A stretch of 64,000 nt of DNA from positions 16,251 through 80,250 of IMG/VR virus record IMGVR_UViG_3300030117_001886, one strand, 5' to 3'. The notes under the pieces are model-generated. The model worked only from the letters and a program-made list of their open reading frames with translations. It did no database searches and was not told the origin of the DNA. Numbering within the stretch: position 1 is the first letter of the stretch; each line of letters opens with the position of its first letter. The translations under genes were made by a program, and so were the position numbers. Shown here piece by piece: positions 8,100 to 64,000 of the stretch. Source of the DNA: a virus.

Positions 8100-8533
8100 G
8101 TTAGTAATTCTTTTACGTTAATAATTTGTTCTTTTAGTTCCTTATTTTCATGTTCGAGATATTCTACACGAGCTGCAAACTTTGCAATCATGTCATCTTT
8201 ATCATTACAATCAGACATGCCTTTAATACCTACAGCTACTTCACATATACCAAAAAATTCTGCATATGGTTTATCTACATCCATAAGATCAGCGTGTACC
8301 TTGAATGCATGTAACACAGTAGAGTGATCTCTATGAAACACGCCAGCATTTACAGTCGTACTATAATGCAACTTATCATTGATAAGAACCATGCATATAC
8401 GTCTTGCTGCAACTACCTCGCCTTGTCTTGTTTTACCTCTAATTTTACTAATAGGAACTTCAGTTAGCCTAGATACTGTAGCAAGTATTCTTGCAACGTT
8501 TGCATCTAGTTTATATAATTTTACTTTTCCCAT
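8096..8533 (-). CDS. Stand-alone DnaA domain IV (origin-binding domain) protein
   Basis: 145 residues. Residues 10-82 match the helical DNA-binding domain IV of bacterial DnaA: a conserved helix (VPISKIRGKTR), AARRICMVLI, and the DnaA signature FHRDHSTVLHAFK at 66-78 (compare GGRDHTTVLHA in DnaA). There is no AAA+ ATPase domain. The C-terminal 50 residues form a likely coiled coil. The family binds DnaA boxes; here the gene overlaps the DNA polymerase start by 13 bp, so a job at the phage origin, or in competing with host DnaA, is likely but inferred. Confidence 0.85.
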   Translation of the reverse strand: MGKVKLYKLDANVARILATVSRLTEVPISKIRGKTRQGEVVAARRICMVLINDKLHYSTTVNAGVFHRDHSTVLHAFKVHADLMDVDKPYAEFFGICEVAVGIKGMSDCNDKDDMIAKFAARVEYLEHENKELKEQIINVKELLT

Positions 8534-10425
8534 GATTTACTAATATTTGTGTCTGCTTTTAACAAACCGTTAGTTACTACTTTTAATGCCGCATCCTCCA
8601 TGTGTCTAGTCATAATATCTACCCATTGTTCTGCAAATTCTATCTTACAAATAGTATCAATCTGATCATGAACTGTCATTACAATCTTCACAGGATAGTT
8701 ATTCTTCTTGATAGCTTGACGAATATATATAAGAGCAAGTTTAGTCATGTCAGCTGATGCGCCTTGTATAGGTGTATTTTTACTAGCACGTTCTATACTA
8801 CCAAGCTCAAAGGCTTGACTCTTGTCTTTGTATATGCGGGGATACCATGTAGGAAACCAGCGTCTTCTATTGAAAGGGGGAAAGGTTTTTATATATCCAA
8901 ACTTTTTACCAAACGAACCAAGCTTATCAAGGAATCCACCGATAGCTGGGAATGCTGCAAAATATTTTTGAATAAGTATCTCTGCTTCTTTAATAGTAAT
9001 GTTAAGAGTATCTGCAAGTTTATGTGGGCCCATACCGTAAGCAAGACCAAAGTTAATTGTCTTAACATTTGTTCTTAACTTACCGTGTTTAGGACATTTA
9101 CATTTACTCTTATTCTTCATATAACTACAATTCTCTTCAGCTGTATCTATCCACTCTTGGCCATAAACAAGATCTGCACATACACTGTGCAAGTCCTGTC
9201 CTTGTTCAAGAGCATTTATCCATACAGGATCTTTAGAACCAAATGCTATTACATTTAGCTCTTGAGAAGAATAATCACTAGATACAAAGCACCAACCTCC
9301 AGGAGCAAGAAAACAATTACGGAACTTATTATCCGCAGGTATCTGTTGCATGTTTGGCTTCTTGGATGCGACGCGTCCAGTGTCAAGTATTTGATTGAAT
9401 TGTGTATGTATTTTACCATCGCTTGAAACAAATTTAAAGAAGTCTTTACCATAAGAAGTAGCAAGCTTCATCTTTTCTTTGTACTTAACATACAAATCAA
9501 TGATTTCATACTTGTGTCTGTATTTATACATCTTCTTACCGTTAACGTCTTCTAGATCAGGGACCAATTTTTTAAATACTTTAAGTACTTGTGTAGGGCT
9601 GGTCCACTTAATCCCCACTTTACGTAAATCTTCTTTAGGAGTAAACAAGTCACCTTGAATATGAGATGGGACAAATTCAGACAGTTGATGATTATTAACT
9701 ACAAATTCGTCTAGTTTATCCCTCATAGTCAAGGCTTCTTGTTCGCTAGCTCGTGCGATGACCTCCCAAGCCTCTCTATCAATATCAATACCATTGTATT
9801 CAATATCAGAGAATGCTAACACCGCTCGATTTTCAAGTTCTACTACCTTGTTTAGTTTAAATTCATCTATCTTAGGTAGTTGTAGATTACGTAGTTTACA
9901 TAAATACTCTACATCTTTAGCACCGTATTGTATTTGATCATCACGATAGGCCTGACCTTGTAGACCTATAAACTGATTTCTGGTTTCTTTGTTAAGTTCT
10001 ACATTTAAGTATCTCTTACAAAGGTCTTTCAATCCATAGCCTATGTGACGACCACAAGATAACACACGTTCCACCAAAAACGTATCATATACGTTATCAC
10101 ACTCTATGTTTGCCCATTTCTTAATAAATTTATAGTCAAACTTAGCATTGTGAAATATTTTAATAATCTTTTTACTTTCTAGTATTTGTCTAAGAGGTTC
10201 TATACTGATATGTCTAGTATCAATTACATACTGGTTGTTCTCATCACCTATCTGAAACATAATCATTTTCTTACAGGTAAAGTCAAAGCCTTCAGTCTCA
10301 GTGTCAACACCGAGGACTTCCTGTCTTCCGCAATAAGCTACAGCTTGATTGATAGTAGCTAGTTCATATAAATCACTATTAAAGTCGTCTCCTAGAGCAG
10401 TACTATTTGTTATCAGCTTTATCAT
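8521..10425 (-). CDS. polA: Family A DNA polymerase with 3'-5' exonuclease
   Basis: 634 residues. The N-terminal third is a DEDDy proofreading exonuclease: GVDTET with D41 and E43 (Exo I), FHNAKFDY with D97 (Exo II) and YGAKDVEYL (Exo III). The polymerase part has motif A (SSDYSSQELNVIA), motif B (KTINFGLAYGM) and motif C at VHDQ (585-588). Cellular enzymes have HDE in motif C; here Glu is replaced by Gln at 588. No 5'-3' exonuclease domain. This is the phage replicase, working with the primase and DnaB-type helicase nearby. A short Cys cluster near 9100-9130 (CSYMKNKSKCKCPKHGK) between motifs A and B looks like a small zinc-binding insert. Confidence 0.95.
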   Translation of the reverse strand: MIKLITNSTALGDDFNSDLYELATINQAVAYCGRQEVLGVDTETEGFDFTCKKMIMFQIGDENNQYVIDTRHISIEPLRQILESKKIIKIFHNAKFDYKFIKKWANIECDNVYDTFLVERVLSCGRHIGYGLKDLCKRYLNVELNKETRNQFIGLQGQAYRDDQIQYGAKDVEYLCKLRNLQLPKIDEFKLNKVVELENRAVLAFSDIEYNGIDIDREAWEVIARASEQEALTMRDKLDEFVVNNHQLSEFVPSHIQGDLFTPKEDLRKVGIKWTSPTQVLKVFKKLVPDLEDVNGKKMYKYRHKYEIIDLYVKYKEKMKLATSYGKDFFKFVSSDGKIHTQFNQILDTGRVASKKPNMQQIPADNKFRNCFLAPGGWCFVSSDYSSQELNVIAFGSKDPVWINALEQGQDLHSVCADLVYGQEWIDTAEENCSYMKNKSKCKCPKHGKLRTNVKTINFGLAYGMGPHKLADTLNITIKEAEILIQKYFAAFPAIGGFLDKLGSFGKKFGYIKTFPPFNRRRWFPTWYPRIYKDKSQAFELGSIERASKNTPIQGASADMTKLALIYIRQAIKKNNYPVKIVMTVHDQIDTICKIEFAEQWVDIMTRHMEDAALKVVTNGLLKADTNISKSWEK

Positions 10426-10645
10426 TTGGCATAATTTTTCTTAAAGAATCGTGAAATGTTTCATCAAATTCTAATAAATATTTTGCATATGTAAGGCTAA
10501 TATTTTTACCTTGAAACGATACAGTTTCTTCATTATTCTTCTCAGCTATGAAATATGCACGTCGTAAATCTTCCATATAGCCTTGTTGTATAGCCATATA
10601 TACTTCTTTCATTTTACCCATTGTAATAATCTTTAATGTTGACAT
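10403..10645 (-). CDS. Small hypothetical protein upstream of polA
   Basis: 80 residues, helical, charged, no recognised domain. It overlaps the polymerase start by 23 bp. A second in-frame ATG at 10621 (MGKMKEVYM) lies close to the upstream gene's stop and may be the true start. Confidence 0.55.
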   Translation of the reverse strand: MSTLKIITMGKMKEVYMAIQQGYMEDLRRAYFIAEKNNEETVSFQGKNISLTYAKYLLEFDETFHDSLRKIMPNDKADNK

Positions 10646-10841
10646 TTTGTTCTTCCATAATTACACGTTCGTTAGATTTTTCGTAAGGAAAAGTCATCCC
10701 AAACATCAGTTGAAAGGAAATATCAGAGTTAATAATTTTTGGTATTTCTAACCATTTTTCTGTTGTAACATATTCACCAGCTTCATCGTATATATGTCTG
10801 GTTCTCAGTATGTTCTGGTGGTGTCCGTTATTATTTGCCAT
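10614..10841 (-). CDS. Small hypothetical protein, first gene after a terminator
   Basis: 75 residues, no recognised motif. It is the first gene downstream of the terminator at 10865-10895, so it probably begins the polA operon. The 23 bp between them hold no promoter consensus, so read-through from the upstream unit may be how the operon is expressed. Confidence 0.55.
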   Translation of the reverse strand: MANNNGHHQNILRTRHIYDEAGEYVTTEKWLEIPKIINSDISFQLMFGMTFPYEKSNERVIMEEQNVNIKDYYNG

Positions 10842-10864: not shown

Positions 10865-10895
10865 TAAAAAAGGTAGAGGATTGCTCCCCTACCTT
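10865..10895 (-). terminator. Strong Rho-independent terminator
   Basis: On the minus strand an 11-bp stem starting AAGGTAGGGGA, closed by a GCAA tetraloop (GNRA type) with one G-U pair, is followed by TTTTTT. It closes the short unit that starts at the promoter near 11035-11065. Confidence 0.85.
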
Positions 10896-10916
10896 CAAAT
10901 TAATTAATTTTAATTA

Positions 10917-10982
10917 CTAGTCGAATATTATGGCCTTAATAACTATAACAATAATTAGTATAATAGCTATGTATAAGGCCAT
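10917..10982 (-). CDS. Possible 21-residue membrane peptide, or part of a small RNA
   Basis: An ATG at 10982 opens a 21-codon frame, MALYIAIILIIVIVIKAIIF then Asp, almost all hydrophobic, ending with TAG. It is the only frame between a perfect promoter and a strong terminator. However, its two ends form an 11-bp inverted repeat (10928-10938 and 10974-10984) and the opposite strand also yields a hydrophobic frame, so the sequence may be kept for RNA structure rather than protein. No clear ribosome-binding site. Confidence 0.3.
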   Translation of the reverse strand: MALYIAIILIIVIVIKAIIFD

Positions 10983-11034
10983 AAATTTGGTTTCTTGAAA
11001 TGAGGTTATAAAATTTCTTATTACAATTTGATAA

Positions 11035-11065
11035 CAAATATACAATAAAAATCTATACCTCCAAA
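11035..11065 (-). promoter_or_regulatory. Consensus Bacteroidota promoter (TTTG-N19-TATATTTG)
   Basis: On the minus strand the -33 box TTTG (11065-11062) is followed after exactly 19 bases by the -7 box TATATTTG (11042-11035). This matches the primary sigma factor consensus known for Bacteroidota (TTTG, 19-21 bases, TAnnTTTG). It lies just past the stop of the 209-residue gene and would start transcription near 11025. Confidence 0.8.
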
Positions 11066-11066
11066 C

Positions 11067-11696
11067 TTATTCTTCTAATAATTTTTTCAGATCTTCCCAT
11101 GACATGTGTCTAGGAGCATTACGAAGTTTATTTAAGACTGAATCTTCTTTTAATTCTGTCCCATATTCTTCTACAAATGCAGTAAAATCTGATTTGACAA
11201 AAGTATGTTCTGGTTTATTGTTAGTTAAGACACATTCTGTATTACTAAATACATAATCTCCTTTACTTTTAACAAAGTCTCCATTTCTACCTTTACGTTT
11301 TGCATACTTCTCAGGATGCAGTACATGTTCTAGTCTAGTTGGTGTAGTAGTTTCTGTAACTTGTACTCTTAATCTAACACCTTTGTATGTAGGATTTAAA
11401 TAATTAAGTTCTACATAATCCTCAAGGTCATCATTAAGTTCCCAGTTAAGTTGTTCTACATCAATACCAAGACCAACAAGTATATCATAGGGTTCAGCAG
11501 GAAACTTAGCACATCTAATACCAGGAGTGTATTTAGAATCAGATTGATTCATAACTACAATAGCTCTAGTATTATTTATAACTCTCTCTCCAACCTCTAT
11601 CATAATCTTTCCTTCATTTGTCCGAGTCATGGATGTAAGGATAGTATCTCCTATGCGTAAGTCCTGTTTATCTATAACTTCATAGTCCATCAACAT
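11067..11696 (-). CDS. Hypothetical early protein
   Basis: 209 residues; no family recognised. The N-terminal half is beta-rich (LRIGDTILTSM, KIMIEVGERV), the C-terminal end helical (PRHMSWEDLKKLLEE). Starts at ATG 11696 or at a second ATG two codons later, overlapping the preceding gene by 17 bp. A promoter for the next unit begins directly after its stop. Confidence 0.6.
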   Translation of the reverse strand: MLMDYEVIDKQDLRIGDTILTSMTRTNEGKIMIEVGERVINNTRAIVVMNQSDSKYTPGIRCAKFPAEPYDILVGLGIDVEQLNWELNDDLEDYVELNYLNPTYKGVRLRVQVTETTTPTRLEHVLHPEKYAKRKGRNGDFVKSKGDYVFSNTECVLTNNKPEHTFVKSDFTAFVEEYGTELKEDSVLNKLRNAPRHMSWEDLKKLLEE

Positions 11697-13260: not shown

Positions 13261-13300
13261 AAATAAAAAAAAGAAAAAAGGGGGGACATAAGTCCCCCTT
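13261..13300 (-). terminator. Strong Rho-independent terminator
   Basis: Stem GGGGGAC/GTCCCCC with a 4-nt loop (13281-13298); on the minus strand it is followed by CTTTTTTCTTTTTTTT. Lies 4 bp past the stop of the 126-residue gene, so that gene is transcribed alone or with strong attenuation. Confidence 0.85.
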
Positions 13301-56769: not shown

Positions 56770-59700
56770 ATGCCAGCAAAAAGAAAAAGTAAAGATCCTA
56801 AAGTTGGGACTGGTAAAAAACCAAAAGGTTCTGATAGAAGACTGTATACTGATGAGAATCCCAAGGATACTGTAGGTATAAAGTTTGCCACACCTGCTGA
56901 TGCTAGAGCTACTGTAGCTAAGGTTAAAAAAATAAATAAGCCTTTTGCTAGAAAAATACAAATCCTTACAGTAGGCGAACAAAGAGCTAAGGTTATGGGC
57001 AAGTCAGAGGTTGTTAATATATTTAAAAAAGGTAAAGAAGCCATTCGTAAACAAAATAAACAAAAGAAACAGTTAGGTGGCTTAGACGAGAATAACATGC
57101 CTATAGGAACAGATATAGGACAATCATATCTGTCTACAATACCTAAGCCACAATCTGTAAACATACCAGTATCTGACATAAGTAAGCTTGCTACAAGGGG
57201 ATCTCAGCTTATGCAGCTAGAGTCTGACCTTGGTGCAATATCTGGTACACGCCCTCTTACAATAGAAGAAGCTCCTGAGTTATATAAAACTAATTTTAAC
57301 ACTGATACTAAAAACTTCTGGAATGCTTTGATGAAGAAGTATAGTGAGTTTAGAATATTAGGAGCAAAAGATAGATTAGGTAAACTAGCTGTGCAAATGG
57401 CTGAGTATAGTAATTCTTTAGAACTAGTAGAACAGTTATATGGTAGTAATGATATTACACTAGATGAAAGGAATGTACTAAATAAGGAAATAACTGATGG
57501 TAAATTATTTAAAAAGAGCGACAAGGTGGGTCCTGGTGCTCAAGTGCTTAACAGAATATTAGGACTACGCTACGATCAAGTTTCTCCACAAGATATACAA
57601 AACTTTGTAAATACTACATACTCACAAGGTTTACTTACAGCTGAAGATTTACAAAGAACTACAATAGATGAATCTGTAACTATGGAATCTATGCTTGAGA
57701 AGCGTAGAGAGTTACAAGAGGAGATAGAGGGCAGAGAGTCTAAGATGGATAGAAGAGCTAAGACTCTTGGCGAAGACTATGCTCTTAGAACTAAACTATC
57801 TGAAGCTAGGGGAGAAACTGCTGGGGGAGACGTGTTTGGTCAGCAAGATTATTTTGAGTATCAACTTGCAGATGATTTAGCAGGTATGGTGTCTACTTGG
57901 GAGGGTATGGCAACTTCTATAGCAGGAGCAACTATACCAGCAATTGTTAGAAATGTATCAAAAACAAAAGACCCTAGAACTGCTTTAGGCCTTACAGCGG
58001 CAGAGATTGCTACTATAGCGTACGGACAGTATTGGAGTAGATCTGCAGAAACATCTATGGAAGTAGGTGAGGCTTATGAGCAGAAGGTGCAACAGCTTAT
58101 GAAAGATAAGCAAGAGGAAATAAAGAAAAGCGGATCTACTAGACCTCTTACACAAAAAGAAACAAATGACATTTATATACAAGCCGCTGACGGGCTTGAT
58201 GAGTTGAGAGATAAAAACATGACTCTTGGTGCAACTGACCTTGTACAGTTTGCTTTAACTTTTGGTAGAATACCTGGAATGAAATGGGCTGGAAACACAG
58301 CTATAGGTAAAGTATCTCAAGCTGCTAGATCTAATCCTTATACCAGAGTTGGGTATAACCTTGGAAGGTATGGGCTAGCTATAGGATTATCTAGACAGTT
58401 AGAAGGTATGGAAGAAGGTATGCAGTATCGTTGGATGGAGGATTACATGGGTAATCATAACATTGGCGATGCAGGATTCTTTCCTCATGCAGCTGAAGGT
58501 GTAAAAGATATGGCTAACTACTTTGGTATGGTCACTGGCATCAAAGAGAAGGACAAGATGTACAACACACCTGGTATGCAAAATGCGATACAAGCAGGTA
58601 AAGATATGGCAACTGTAATGACAGGAGCTGGTCGTGCTCATAGAGGTATTACAGATCAATATCATTATAGGGTAGCGTTAAATGCGTTGGGAGAGGATGG
58701 TAAAAACTACGACGCCTTAGAAGCTAGCAGAATAAAAAGAGAAGCACTACTACCGTACTTTATAAATGGTAGAACAAAATATTTACAGGACGCCTTATAC
58801 AGAATGGGTAGTAAAGGCACTATAGATGGGTTTGATAAGGATGCAGCAATAGATGCAATCAAGGAAATAGATCAATTAAAAAATGACTATAACAAAATCT
58901 TCGATAAGAGGTCTCCAATAGGGATCTCTATCGCTGGTTTTGAGTATGACATATTAAGAGGAGCACAAATATCTCCACATACACAATATGATAGAGGATT
59001 TGTATTTAATAATGTATCCGATATACGATCTCAGGAAAAACTATTAGAAGACCTTAAGGGACAAAGAGATACGCACCTGTCTAACAAAAGTGAGCTTGCA
59101 GACTTTTTTGTTGATGATGCCTTAACGGACGCTCAGAAACAATCTATAGAGCAAAAACTTGCACAACGTGGTATAAATGCTACGCCTGTAGATCTACTAA
59201 TAGAAGAGTTAGAAGCAGATATTGCTAGCAAGAAACAAGACAATGCTAATATAGGTACAGGTGATTATACATTTGCTGCAACTCCTGGACTAGCTCCTGG
59301 TTTATATAAAAGAGAAGACTTTGATGCACTCTTTATACCAGATAGAAAAGGTAAACTAGCAGGCGGTATTCTAAAACAAATACAAGATTTACAGAAAAAG
59401 AAGTTAGATTCTCAAACGCAGGTAGAAGGTGCTCCTGCATTTACTGAGGAGGATCAACAGTTGTTAGATAATCTTATACTAGCTAAGAATAAATTAGAGT
59501 ATGAAGCTGCTTTTGAATATTTTGGCAAGCAAAGACTTAAGAATAAAAACAGAATAGCTAGAGCTGCAGCTTACGACACGCTAACTAGACTTATATCTAT
59601 ACTAGAAAGTAGAGGAAAGGAAGGGCTAAAAGAAGTTTTACCATCTATACTGACTAATAATACTAAGATGGATCAGCAAACTATTGAAGAGATAGCTCAG

Positions 59701-62700
59701 CTTGCAGATCAAATTGTTACAGATAATCAAAAAGCTGTTGAAAGATCTGGTCAAATAGAAGACGAGATAGATACTTTACTAGGTATTGATGGAGAGATGA
59801 CTGAGGCAGAGCTTGCAGATCATGATCGTTTATTAAAAGAGAAGGAGCAGACGGGTTTAAGTACAAATGTTCAAGAGTTAGAAAGACTTCGCAAAAGAAA
59901 AGAAGCTGATAGAAAGTCTAAAGAACTTCGTAAAGAACAGCTTGCTTTAAATGAAAGTATAAAAACAGGGTCGCAAATAGCACAGCAGGCACAGAATTTA
60001 TTAAATCGTTTAGCAAAAGATAATACAGACCATCTACTAGACGATTCTAACTATACACCTAGCACTAATGAGTCGTTGGTAAGAGATGTAGCGGTAGAAG
60101 ATATTAGTAATGAACTTGCAAAAATTGCTGCAGAGTTGCAAGATAACCCACAATATGCTAACCTTGATAGGATAGATAGTGCTCTTAATGATTTAGAAAG
60201 ACGTATAGCTATATTTGGTTTGCGTATAGAGGATACTGAATTACAATCAGAAAAAGATTTATATGAATCTGTAAAGCAAGAATTAGAGGGGCTGTTACCA
60301 AGTGCATCTGAGTTAAGAAGTATTATAGAACAAAATGCTATAAGTAGAGGAATAGCACAACTAGAACTAGAGGGTGATGTAGTTACTCAAATGCTTGCAC
60401 CTTTAGGGTTGGATGCAGAGTTTAATGTGGTAGAGGAAGGTCTTAACAAAAAGTTACAAGATGTAGTATCTCAAGAGCAAATTGATTCTGTAATTTCAGG
60501 TGTTCAGTCGGGAGAGATTACTGATAAAATAATGGCTGCACAAATTCTACTGGACCTGTTTAAAATAGGTCTTAATGAACAGCCTGGATTTAAAAATGAT
60601 TTAGTACAGGATATACAAGGAACTATAAAAAGTTTAAAACTTGGTTTAGAGAATCAGTTTAGAGGAATGCAAAAAGCAGGGGGTAATGCATATATAAAAG
60701 ATCCTGCAAATAACTTTCCATCAATATACTTTAACTTTCTAGGCAGAGAGCAGAAAGATCCAAACAATGCTTACTTTAAATATCAGGACCATGTAAGTGA
60801 GCCTAAACTACTTAGAGAGCTTAAGCAGCAAGGCATAATGCCTGAGATGCAAAAACTTCTTGAATTACATCTATCAGTAAAAACATTAGAAAACTTCCTA
60901 AAAGAACTTGAGTCAGATGTAACAGCTGCTACTAATATACTAAATGAGAAACAGTTAGTTGATAATAAAAGACTTACATACCTACCAACAAAACAACAGA
61001 TCAATGCTGTAAGAGAGATTGTATCATTCTTGTACACTCCGCTAGCTAAACTAAGCAAAGGTAAGAAGGGTCTAGGCAGTGTCTCTGCGCTTCTACAAGG
61101 GGCTGCGGGTACAGGTAAAACAAATATAGTTTTAAAAATGGCTATTCAAATGGCAGGTCTTGCAAACAATCAGATCTTTGCATTTGGACATAACGATAGC
61201 TCATCAGAAACTATAAACAAATCTCTAGGATTACCTACAAATACAATTGAAAAGTTCTTATCTGATGATACTGTAATATATGATGCAGTTAGATTACTTA
61301 TAATTGATGAAGCGCCTGGTATATCTACAGAACAACAATTGCAAATACAGCAAAAAGTAGAACAAATAAACGAGGGTAGAGCAGCTGGTGATAAGCTTAG
61401 AGTTATACTAGCAGGTGACCCTGCACAAATTACACAAGATGGATCAAACAGACCACTTGCTACTAGTCAAATCGAGTTTAACTTAGCTAAAGTTATTACG
61501 CCTGTTACATCTTTATATAGAAGTGATAACCCTGCAATTATAGATTTCCAAGATTCGTTCAGAAGAAGAGTAGATATTCCTACAAATCGTATAATAAATG
61601 TACGATCAACAGGTGTAAACTTTAAGACAGCTGATGAAACGCAAGGCATGCTATCTGGTGTTATTGGTTTAGGCGGCAACATGAAAGATGAGATTGTAGA
61701 AAGACTTATGAAGTTAGAGGATGCGGAGGCAGGTCCTAGAGCTATCATTACAAATCCATCTAGGGTAGAAGAGTATAGAGCTTTCTTAGAAGCTAATAAC
61801 ATAAAGAAGACAGAGGTATTATCATATATTGATGCACAAGGTAGAACTCTAGAAGAGGTATACATGGACATAAATGCTGCAGACTTTGCGGATGAAGCAG
61901 GACAGATAGATGGGGAAGCATTCAATAAAGCATTGTACACAGCTGCTTCTCGTGCAAGTAGATTGGTAATAGCATCTGGTCTAAACATTGTAAATGCTGT
62001 AGATGTAAACTTAGATAACTTGTCATCAGGATTATCACAAGAGATAAGTGATAGAAATGATCAGTATATAACTGAAGTAAATGCAAATGCAGAGTTTATC
62101 AAAATGTTCCCACAACTTGTAGAAGATGTAGATCCTGGGCAAGTAGTAGTTACACCTACAGAAACCCAGTCTCCAGAAGAGGCACAGAAAATTGTGGATG
62201 AACTATTTCCACTTGAAGAAGAAGGTGATCCTTTAGGAATAGACGATAGAGTAGAGTTTGAGTTAGACGACGCTGATGTAGATGTTAATCTAGCTGAGCA
62301 AGATGTAGAGTATCAAGAGAATAAGTTTGATACAGGCGGACAATCTATCACGTACAAAGGTAGAAAAGAAAAAGGTAAACCAAAGTCTGATGCACTATAC
62401 TACCCAGAGTCCGAAGCATTATTAGAAGACATAGATTCAGGCGGTCAGGCTATAGCTCCTATATCAGAAGATATGGGTGTTATGTTTGTAAAAGTAGACC
62501 GCGATGGGCAGTCTGGTATTGCAGTTATACAACAAGCCTACAGAACAATGTCTGATGGTACAGCAGATATAAGCAGACCTATACAAGATACATATAAAAG
62601 AGTTGCGGTAATAGGGCTAGATGAACTTGATACAGGACTAAGCTTCCTGTCTAACCAAGAAAAAGAGGTACTAAAAGCTGCACTACAAAGTGATGATCTT

Positions 62701-64000
62701 GGCGCTAGGTTTATACAGTTTGGTACAAAGAATGCTAGTACTGTAGAAGATTTAGATGGTGATGTTGCAGCCTACAATTTATTAGCAGGCTTTAGAATAC
62801 CAAAAGGTGGTACACAGAGATTTAAATTTAAGTACAAATCTGCAAAGAGGGTAAGAGGCGAAGTACGTGTACAAAATCCAAACATTTGGGCCCAAGACAA
62901 TAGAGGTGTAATAGATAGAGTAAAGCAAAAGTTTTTGAGCGGTGCTTATACAGATTCTCAACCGCCTAAAAATCCTAATGCAATTAGTTTTGATCTTAAA
63001 GTATTTACAAGAGAGGATATAAATAATGCAGCGGTTGCTATGCCTGAGATGTCCTCAGAGTTAGTAAAGAACTTACAACCAGGTAGACCGTATCTTGTTA
63101 TAAGTAATGCAGAGGTAAAGAATGGTGAGCCTAAAACATATGCAATAGAGCTAAGACCTAGACCTATATCACCAAAGATACAATCTGACTTTGATAGATT
63201 TTATGAACCTATGCTAGTGTTTATACGAACTATGAAAGAGCTTGAGCAGATACTACAGGCACCATACGGGTCAAAAGGATTACATCAACTTATTGTACCT
63301 GGTAAGAGATCTGAGGAGCAAATGCAGGAGCTTATTGCAGCTAGACTACAAGAGATAGGACAGCCTCAATTGTTACCACAAGCGCTAGAGCTTAGAGATG
63401 AAATACTAATGTTACGTTTTGAAAAGCGTAATGAGAAAGGAGAGCTTACAGGTATAGGCCCTGCACAGAAAGCTATTAATAGATTGGGTGTTTCCAATTC
63501 TATGTTAAGAACTGTTAGGATGACTAAAGATGGTAAGCGTGCAGTTCCAAGAAGTCTTCTTACATATTTAAATGAGCAAGAAGAATTAGACTCTATGTCT
63601 AATAGAAACAAGTTTACTATAGAGAGGTTAGAAGATTTGTTTGACCCAAATGTAAACTGGAACAACGGTGGTGTAGGTCAAACCGGTCTATATTTACCAA
63701 TCCCTAACTTTGCTGTATACAAGAACATAGATCAGTATATGGAGCAGATAGAGCAATCATTAATAGATATACTAGAAGAGGTTGAGCCTAGTAAGATTAT
63801 ACTAGAAAGACCGGGCAAGCCTAAACCACAGAAGGCACCAACAAGACAGGTAGAAAAGAAAGAAGATAATATTATCATATCTGATGAAGAGCAAAAAGAG
63901 GCTGATAATATTATAGGAGGCATAGAGTTAGACTATAGAGATAACAACAGCGGGTTAAAAGGTGAGAAAATTACTAGACAGAAAGCACTAAATTTACTAA
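56770..64000 (+). CDS. Giant internal virion protein with SF1 (RecD/Dda-like) helicase domain (3' end beyond window)
   Basis: Open from ATG 56770 to the window edge: at least 2410 residues. Domains seen: a basic N-terminus; coiled-coil segments; two hydrophobic Gly/Ala stretches near 380-410 and 500-545; long helical regions at 700-1400; then a complete SF1 helicase. Its motifs are TKQQINAVREI (Q-motif type), Walker A G1444-AAGTGK-T1451, motif II I1512-DEAPG, motif III LAGDPAQ (1547-1553), SLYRSDN, and motif VI TAASRA (1724-1729). After it come acidic and further unknown domains. Position after two large presumed ejection proteins suggests it is carried in the virion and ejected; this is inferred. 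In crAss-like phages the comparable gene codes for a virion RNA polymerase; no polymerase motif is seen here. Confidence 0.82.
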   Translation, partial: MPAKRKSKDPKVGTGKKPKGSDRRLYTDENPKDTVGIKFATPADARATVAKVKKINKPFARKIQILTVGEQRAKVMGKSEVVNIFKKGKEAIRKQNKQKKQLGGLDENNMPIGTDIGQSYLSTIPKPQSVNIPVSDISKLATRGSQLMQLESDLGAISGTRPLTIEEAPELYKTNFNTDTKNFWNALMKKYSEFRILGAKDRLGKLAVQMAEYSNSLELVEQLYGSNDITLDERNVLNKEITDGKLFKKSDKVGPGAQVLNRILGLRYDQVSPQDIQNFVNTTYSQGLLTAEDLQRTTIDESVTMESMLEKRRELQEEIEGRESKMDRRAKTLGEDYALRTKLSEARGETAGGDVFGQQDYFEYQLADDLAGMVSTWEGMATSIAGATIPAIVRNVSKTKDPRTALGLTAAEIATIAYGQYWSRSAETSMEVGEAYEQKVQQLMKDKQEEIKKSGSTRPLTQKETNDIYIQAADGLDELRDKNMTLGATDLVQFALTFGRIPGMKWAGNTAIGKVSQAARSNPYTRVGYNLGRYGLAIGLSRQLEGMEEGMQYRWMEDYMGNHNIGDAGFFPHAAEGVKDMANYFGMVTGIKEKDKMYNTPGMQNAIQAGKDMATVMTGAGRAHRGITDQYHYRVALNALGEDGKNYDALEASRIKREALLPYFINGRTKYLQDALYRMGSKGTIDGFDKDAAIDAIKEIDQLKNDYNKIFDKRSPIGISIAGFEYDILRGAQISPHTQYDRGFVFNNVSDIRSQEKLLEDLKGQRDTHLSNKSELADFFVDDALTDAQKQSIEQKLAQRGINATPVDLLIEELEADIASKKQDNANIGTGDYTFAATPGLAPGLYKREDFDALFIPDRKGKLAGGILKQIQDLQKKKLDSQTQVEGAPAFTEEDQQLLDNLILAKNKLEYEAAFEYFGKQRLKNKNRIARAAAYDTLTRLISILESRGKEGLKEVLPSILTNNTKMDQQTIEEIAQLADQIVTDNQKAVERSGQIEDEIDTLLGIDGEMTEAELADHDRLLKEKEQTGLSTNVQELERLRKRKEADRKSKELRKEQLALNESIKTGSQIAQQAQNLLNRLAKDNTDHLLDDSNYTPSTNESLVRDVAVEDISNELAKIAAELQDNPQYANLDRIDSALNDLERRIAIFGLRIEDTELQSEKDLYESVKQELEGLLPSASELRSIIEQNAISRGIAQLELEGDVVTQMLAPLGLDAEFNVVEEGLNKKLQDVVSQEQIDSVISGVQSGEITDKIMAAQILLDLFKIGLNEQPGFKNDLVQDIQGTIKSLKLGLENQFRGMQKAGGNAYIKDPANNFPSIYFNFLGREQKDPNNAYFKYQDHVSEPKLLRELKQQGIMPEMQKLLELHLSVKTLENFLKELESDVTAATNILNEKQLVDNKRLTYLPTKQQINAVREIVSFLYTPLAKLSKGKKGLGSVSALLQGAAGTGKTNIVLKMAIQMAGLANNQIFAFGHNDSSSETINKSLGLPTNTIEKFLSDDTVIYDAVRLLIIDEAPGISTEQQLQIQQKVEQINEGRAAGDKLRVILAGDPAQITQDGSNRPLATSQIEFNLAKVITPVTSLYRSDNPAIIDFQDSFRRRVDIPTNRIINVRSTGVNFKTADETQGMLSGVIGLGGNMKDEIVERLMKLEDAEAGPRAIITNPSRVEEYRAFLEANNIKKTEVLSYIDAQGRTLEEVYMDINAADFADEAGQIDGEAFNKALYTAASRASRLVIASGLNIVNAVDVNLDNLSSGLSQEISDRNDQYITEVNANAEFIKMFPQLVEDVDPGQVVVTPTETQSPEEAQKIVDELFPLEEEGDPLGIDDRVEFELDDADVDVNLAEQDVEYQENKFDTGGQSITYKGRKEKGKPKSDALYYPESEALLEDIDSGGQAIAPISEDMGVMFVKVDRDGQSGIAVIQQAYRTMSDGTADISRPIQDTYKRVAVIGLDELDTGLSFLSNQEKEVLKAALQSDDLGARFIQFGTKNASTVEDLDGDVAAYNLLAGFRIPKGGTQRFKFKYKSAKRVRGEVRVQNPNIWAQDNRGVIDRVKQKFLSGAYTDSQPPKNPNAISFDLKVFTREDINNAAVAMPEMSSELVKNLQPGRPYLVISNAEVKNGEPKTYAIELRPRPISPKIQSDFDRFYEPMLVFIRTMKELEQILQAPYGSKGLHQLIVPGKRSEEQMQELIAARLQEIGQPQLLPQALELRDEILMLRFEKRNEKGELTGIGPAQKAINRLGVSNSMLRTVRMTKDGKRAVPRSLLTYLNEQEELDSMSNRNKFTIERLEDLFDPNVNWNNGGVGQTGLYLPIPNFAVYKNIDQYMEQIEQSLIDILEEVEPSKIILERPGKPKPQKAPTRQVEKKEDNIIISDEEQKEADNIIGGIELDYRDNNSGLKGEKITRQKALNLL

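What the first reader, a model, noticed from the sequence alone, without database searches (positions are those of the whole stretch)
10865..11065. Self-contained small transcription unit: perfect promoter, hairpin or 21-residue membrane peptide, strong terminator
TTTG-N19-TATATTTG is an exact Bacteroidota promoter; about 130-160 nt later comes a GNRA-loop terminator. Between them is either a hydrophobic 21-residue peptide or an RNA closed by an 11-bp stem (10928-10938/10974-10984). Such a unit looks like a phage regulatory RNA, a toxin-like peptide or an antiholin, sitting just before the polymerase operon, where terminator read-through could control replication genes.
Basis: partly seen in the sequence, partly recalled or inferred. 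Interest (0 to 1): 0.7.

Follow-up and report, generated by a model that had tools for sequence, protein, structure and literature searches.

The report
Tiny membrane-peptide gene in marine phage
A marine crAss-like phage carries, just before its DNA-polymerase genes, a minimal gene (promoter, 21-residue membrane peptide, terminator) that relatives share and that travels with the gene before it, so it is probably a real small membrane protein rather than a regulatory RNA.

Summary
On the minus strand of a crAss-like phage lie an exact Bacteroidota promoter (TTTG-N19-TATATTTG, 11065-11035), an ORF for MALYIAIILIIVIVIKAIIFD (10982-10917), an 11-bp stem inside that ORF and a GNRA-loop terminator (10896-10869), before p75-p80-DNA polymerase. 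Of the two readings offered, the peptide wins. Four further lineages have the same promoter, a conserved leader motif (TATAACCTCATTTCAGAGAA), a 23-33-residue single-transmembrane ORF 46-55 nt after the -7 element, and a terminator. Shuffled DNA gives such an ORF with P of 0.001 or less each. The stem is partly kept in the nearest relative only. The unit is inherited with the upstream 209-aa gene, not with the polymerase: carriers form one clade in the p209 tree (100/99) but not in the polymerase tree (AU p = 1.6e-5). Most relatives put other contents in the same promoter-X-terminator slot: an AT-hook-like protein or a conserved non-coding leader. Most likely the host RNA polymerase makes a short mRNA for a membrane microprotein of unknown target; leakage through the terminator may feed the polymerase operon, which has no other consensus promoter nearby. 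No antisense promoter or antiterminator was found. Ordinary parts, a new member of a known kind, in an unusual exchangeable slot.

The parts
11035..11065 (-). promoter of the Bacteroidota primary sigma type: TTTG-N19-TATATTTG
   Evidence: same motif at the same place in four other peptide-type lineages and most relatives; consensus from PMC6847099
10983..11034 (-). 52-nt leader with conserved motif TATAACCTCATTTC(A)AGAAACC (about 11010-10989)
   Evidence: alignment; longest shared words of 12-16 nt with relatives against 6.4-6.7 in shuffles
10917..10982 (-). ORF for the single-transmembrane peptide MALYIAIILIIVIVIKAIIFD
   Evidence: positional and hydrophobic equivalents in L001, L004, L009, L084/L059
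10928..10984 (-). 11-bp stem closing the ORF (arms 10984-10974 and 10938-10928); start codon in the 5' arm
   Evidence: partly kept in L001 only, absent in L004, L009, L084
10869..10896 (-). intrinsic terminator, 12-bp stem, GCAA loop, T6 tract
   Evidence: hairpins of different sequence at the same place in all five lineages
11067..11696 (-). p209, upstream gene co-inherited with the unit
   Evidence: p209 tree: peptide-type rows form one clade, 100/99
10614..10841 (-). p75, first gene after the terminator, no family match
   Evidence: relatives
10403..10645 (-). p80 (MGKMKE... family), conserved before the polymerase
8521..10425 (-). family A DNA polymerase
   Evidence: PF00476 2.7e-68, phrog_17

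Best explanation
It is a minimal monocistronic gene for a single-transmembrane microprotein. Shown by sequence: a consensus Bacteroidota promoter, a conserved 46-55-nt leader, a 21-33-residue strongly hydrophobic ORF at a fixed place, and an intrinsic terminator, in five lineages of marine crAss-like phages, co-inherited with the upstream p209 gene. Inferred: the host RNA polymerase with its primary sigma factor transcribes about 160 nt from near 11030 during infection. The leader, which has no Shine-Dalgarno sequence, is translated, and the peptide inserts into the host inner membrane as one helix. There it acts on a host membrane target, for takeover or exclusion; which target is a guess. 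Most transcripts stop at the terminator. Some leakage through it, or the phage's virion RNA polymerase, supplies p75-p80-polymerase.
For: Promoter exact and unique in the replication module; consensus TTTG/TAHHTTTG, average leader 33 nt and natural lack of Shine-Dalgarno sequences from PMC6847099. Same layout in L001/L002, L004, L009/L026 and L059/L084: -7-to-ATG distance 46-55 nt, stop-to-T6 39-50 nt. P of an equally hydrophobic ORF of 20 or more residues in dinucleotide shuffles: 0, 0, 0.001, 0.001, 0.0005 of 2000 each. Nearest relative: 15 of 20 aligned residues identical, ending KAIIFD-stop, no gap inside the ORF but a 2-nt gap right after the stop. Co-inheritance with p209 against the polymerase tree.
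Against: Substitutions between the two alignable copies favour coding only weakly (blosum P about 0.02, identity P about 0.09, third-position excess not significant). The peptides of distant lineages cannot be aligned with confidence, and T-rich phage DNA readily encodes hydrophobic strings. The 12-16-nt exactly shared leader motif suggests an RNA or DNA signal too. The start codon lies inside a stable stem in the window and lacks A at -3. No expression data.
Confidence: 0.66

Rival explanations
1. Leaky terminator or attenuator before the polymerase operon: the promoter at 11065 is that of p75-p80-polymerase, and the short unit is its leader. Termination at 10869 sets how much polymerase is made; the peptide or a factor may modulate it.
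For: No consensus promoter between terminator and polymerase in any of the five peptide-type lineages; only 18-39 nt lie between the T6 tract and the next ATG. Promoter-X-terminator-p80-polymerase also occurs with other contents X. In the D-type layout the same kind of promoter directly precedes p75.
Against: No pairing between leader and terminator arm beyond shuffles. Leader peptides share no regulatory codon run beyond hydrophobic residues. The unit is inherited with p209, not with polymerase. In crAss-like phages replication genes are reported to be transcribed by the virion polymerase (PMC10136315), which would need no host promoter.
Confidence: 0.3
2. Regulatory small RNA whose function lies in the 11-bp stem; the ORF is incidental.
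For: Fold z -4.5 for the whole RNA; stem stronger than synonymous recodings (z -2.6, P 0.014; L001 z -1.7, P 0.057); two compensatory pairs between window and L001 (read). In group C the same slot holds a conserved non-coding leader.
Against: L004, L009 and L084 show no such stem (z near 0), two of 11 pairs break in L001, and the inverted repeat is within chance for the window.
Confidence: 0.1
3. Toxic membrane peptide of a type I toxin-antitoxin pair, or an antiholin.
For: Length and composition resemble short hydrophobic type I toxins (PMC8309996, seen at abstract level).
Against: No antisense promoter with -33 and -7 boxes across the unit in any of the five lineages; phage replication module, not a recognisable lysis cassette; no family match.
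Confidence: 0.1

Closest known systems
Transcription units with promoters of the Bacteroidota primary sigma factor (sigma ABfr, TTTG/TAHHTTTG), PMC6847099
   Same: both boxes exact, 19-nt spacing, leadered mRNA without Shine-Dalgarno
   Different: lies in a phage replication module; the -33 box follows the upstream stop codon by one base
Single-transmembrane phage and bacterial microproteins (small membrane proteins under 50 aa)
   Same: one hydrophobic helix, 21-33 residues; positively charged C-terminal tail in three of five lineages, a single Lys in the other two
   Different: no sequence family found in PHROGs; exchangeable slot before DNA polymerase
Type I toxin peptides (Ibs, Hok and similar)
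   Same: size and hydrophobicity
   Different: no antisense RNA promoter found; phage gene conserved by position
Transcription attenuators with leader peptides
   Same: promoter, short ORF, terminator, then operon
   Different: no antiterminator, no shared control codons, not co-inherited with the operon

Membership tests
Sigma ABfr-type promoter | -33 TTTG and -7 TAHHTTTG at the usual spacing | tested here: met
   consensus
Sigma ABfr-type promoter | transcription start about 5 nt after the -7 element | not testable with these tools
   needs RNA-seq
Intrinsic terminator | G+C-rich hairpin directly followed by a U-run | tested here: met
   same in all five lineages
Single-transmembrane microprotein gene | short ORF at a conserved place with one hydrophobic stretch, more than composition gives | tested here: met
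   P of 0.001 or less in each of five
Single-transmembrane microprotein gene | codon-level selection | tested here: inconclusive
   blosum P about 0.02, identity P about 0.09
Type I toxin-antitoxin | antisense RNA over the toxin mRNA | tested here: not met
   no antisense -33/-7 pair in five lineages; weaker or other promoters cannot be excluded
Leader-peptide attenuator | mutually exclusive antiterminator structure | tested here: not met
   leader to terminator-arm pairing no better than shuffles
Structured regulatory RNA | secondary structure conserved across relatives | tested here: not met
   L004, L009 and L084 without stem; no Rfam match
Antiholin or holin | lies in a lysis cassette beside an endolysin | tested here: inconclusive
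   neighbours with a match are replication genes; p75, p80 and p209 have no match

The most novel reading that the evidence does not exclude
The slot before the polymerase operon is a standing exchangeable site for host-polymerase-driven accessory products (membrane microprotein, AT-hook-like protein or non-coding RNA). In the peptide type it is inherited with p209, and its terminator doubles as the dose valve for the replication genes, which are otherwise read by the virion RNA polymerase.
Probability: 0.2. Interest if true: 0.65.

Novelty: new member of a known kind. Interest (0 to 1): 0.42.

Why it matters
If true, crAss-like phages keep a small exchangeable site beside their replication genes that is read by the host polymerase and carries different accessory products in sister phages. 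It also adds a 21-residue gene class that ORF callers with a 50-60-residue floor miss, and gives a concrete test of how these phages share work between host and virion RNA polymerases.

Tried and rejected
Rfam, tRNA and PHROGs searches of the unit: nothing. Distant DNA search in phages: no match. L031's hydrophobic ORF was rejected: it overlaps the promoter box and looks like its translation. A conserved MSDKTLKSVF peptide in group C was considered and dropped, since it is broken in most members. p209 as an ssDNA-binding protein: AlphaFold model pLDDT 84, but Foldseek gave no match, and the best VIA-align row was PrgE at Z 2.5, rmsd 4.9, 85 aligned, which is undecided. Virion RNA polymerase by sequence against the PDB: nothing.

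Full report
Context. The window is part of an 80,250-base virus record. Its terminase and portal match crAss-like PHROGs and its terminase is about 42% identical to human-gut crAss-like phages. The minus-strand block 1.4-14.3 kb holds replication genes: family A polymerase, helicases and primase. An ORF of more than 2,400 residues (56770-63999, open) contains a DLDGD motif, as expected from general knowledge of virion RNA polymerases of this group; sequence search did not confirm it.

Observation. The promoter is exact and is the only correctly spaced consensus pair in an intergenic stretch of the replication module. The stem by itself is within chance for the window.

Peptide or RNA. Relatives of the polymerase gave 80 loci and of p209 two. 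Five lineages, called group A here, share promoter, leader motif, hydrophobic ORF and terminator: window, L001/L002, L004, L009/L026, L059/L084. The ORFs are MALYIAIILIIVIVIKAIIFD, MLTALYIVAILIFVILVKAIIFD, MNISFFGYIFMSIPIIFTLLYFISYIYERFTKR, MFLTLFLSFNFLVLTVVIRKIISNNTK and MFGKLFIIITIYLLVRLTIIRIIENVKR. In dinucleotide shuffles of the same stretches an ORF of 20 or more residues that is as hydrophobic appears in 0.1% or fewer. The stem is partly kept in L001 (7 pairs unchanged, 2 compensatory, 2 broken, read by hand) and is absent in the other three. With codons resampled, the fold energy is unusual only in the window (P 0.014) and marginal in L001 (0.057). Codon-level selection between window and L001 is suggestive only.

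Slot and inheritance. In relatives the place between p209 and p80-polymerase mostly begins with the same kind of promoter but differs in content. Group A has the membrane peptide. Group B has a 60-71-residue protein with GRP motifs (MNTLIKNAGKVV...RGRPVGSK). Group C has a non-coding leader of about 110 nt with conserved blocks. Group D has terminator, promoter, p75, with nothing in between. In A and C, and in most of B, a terminator then separates this from p80-polymerase and no consensus promoter with a -33 box follows. Group labels were set by me from this anatomy before trees were built. In the polymerase tree group A is scattered: the window is sister to L003 of group B (100/99), and holding A as one clade is rejected (AU p 1.6e-5; window with L001 1.4e-4). 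In the p209 tree A is one clade (100/99). So p209, promoter, peptide and terminator move as one block, with a joint between terminator and polymerase.

Mechanism. Established knowledge from papers: the primary sigma consensus and absent Shine-Dalgarno (PMC6847099); replication genes of crAss-like phages are read early by the virion polymerase, late genes probably by the host polymerase (PMC10136315; PMC8375218). From this I infer a host-polymerase-driven mini-gene inside a block otherwise read by the phage's own enzyme. The peptide should insert as one helix. Which host membrane protein it meets is unknown. Read-through at the terminator may add to polymerase expression. Antisense promoter and antiterminator were looked for and not found.

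Judgement. Ordinary parts, real unit, peptide more likely than RNA, unusual exchangeable slot. Main limits: five lineages only, one alignable peptide pair, incomplete contigs, no expression data.

Noticed in passing
L003, L005, L006, L007, L010, L017, L035, L036, L038, L028, about 40 bases ahead of TATATTTG upstream of the polymerase: In group B phages the promoter sits inside a terminator: a 12-bp hairpin carries the -33 TTTG or CTTG in its loop, the U-tract is the spacer and the -7 box follows. Covariation is strong (95% of cells paired, 7 of 12 pairs with changes on both sides, 0 of 500 shuffles), with a G-U pair in all 14 sequences that speaks for RNA. Group C looks similar. Absent in the window.
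   Followed up: partly
L046, L052, L057, L066, L080, L053, L048, between promoter and terminator: A conserved non-coding leader of about 110 nt (GTC-N6-GAC, then about TNTAAAAN2AGTATTT) in the slot, without a conserved ORF; a possible new RNA family.
   Followed up: partly
window 11067-11696: p209 family: AlphaFold model rich in strands at pLDDT 84 without a clear fold match; invariant residues listed. Possibly an OB-type ssDNA-binding protein.
   Followed up: partly
L239:1420-1600: A distant relative (polymerase 63% identical) in a Cytophagaceae MAG contig has another hairpin leader (AAAACACAT...GTGTGTTTT) before p80-polymerase.
   Followed up: no
window 13281-13298: Another strong terminator-like hairpin (GGGGGACTTATGTCCCCC, T-run) in the leftward block, with T-runs on both strands.
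   Followed up: no
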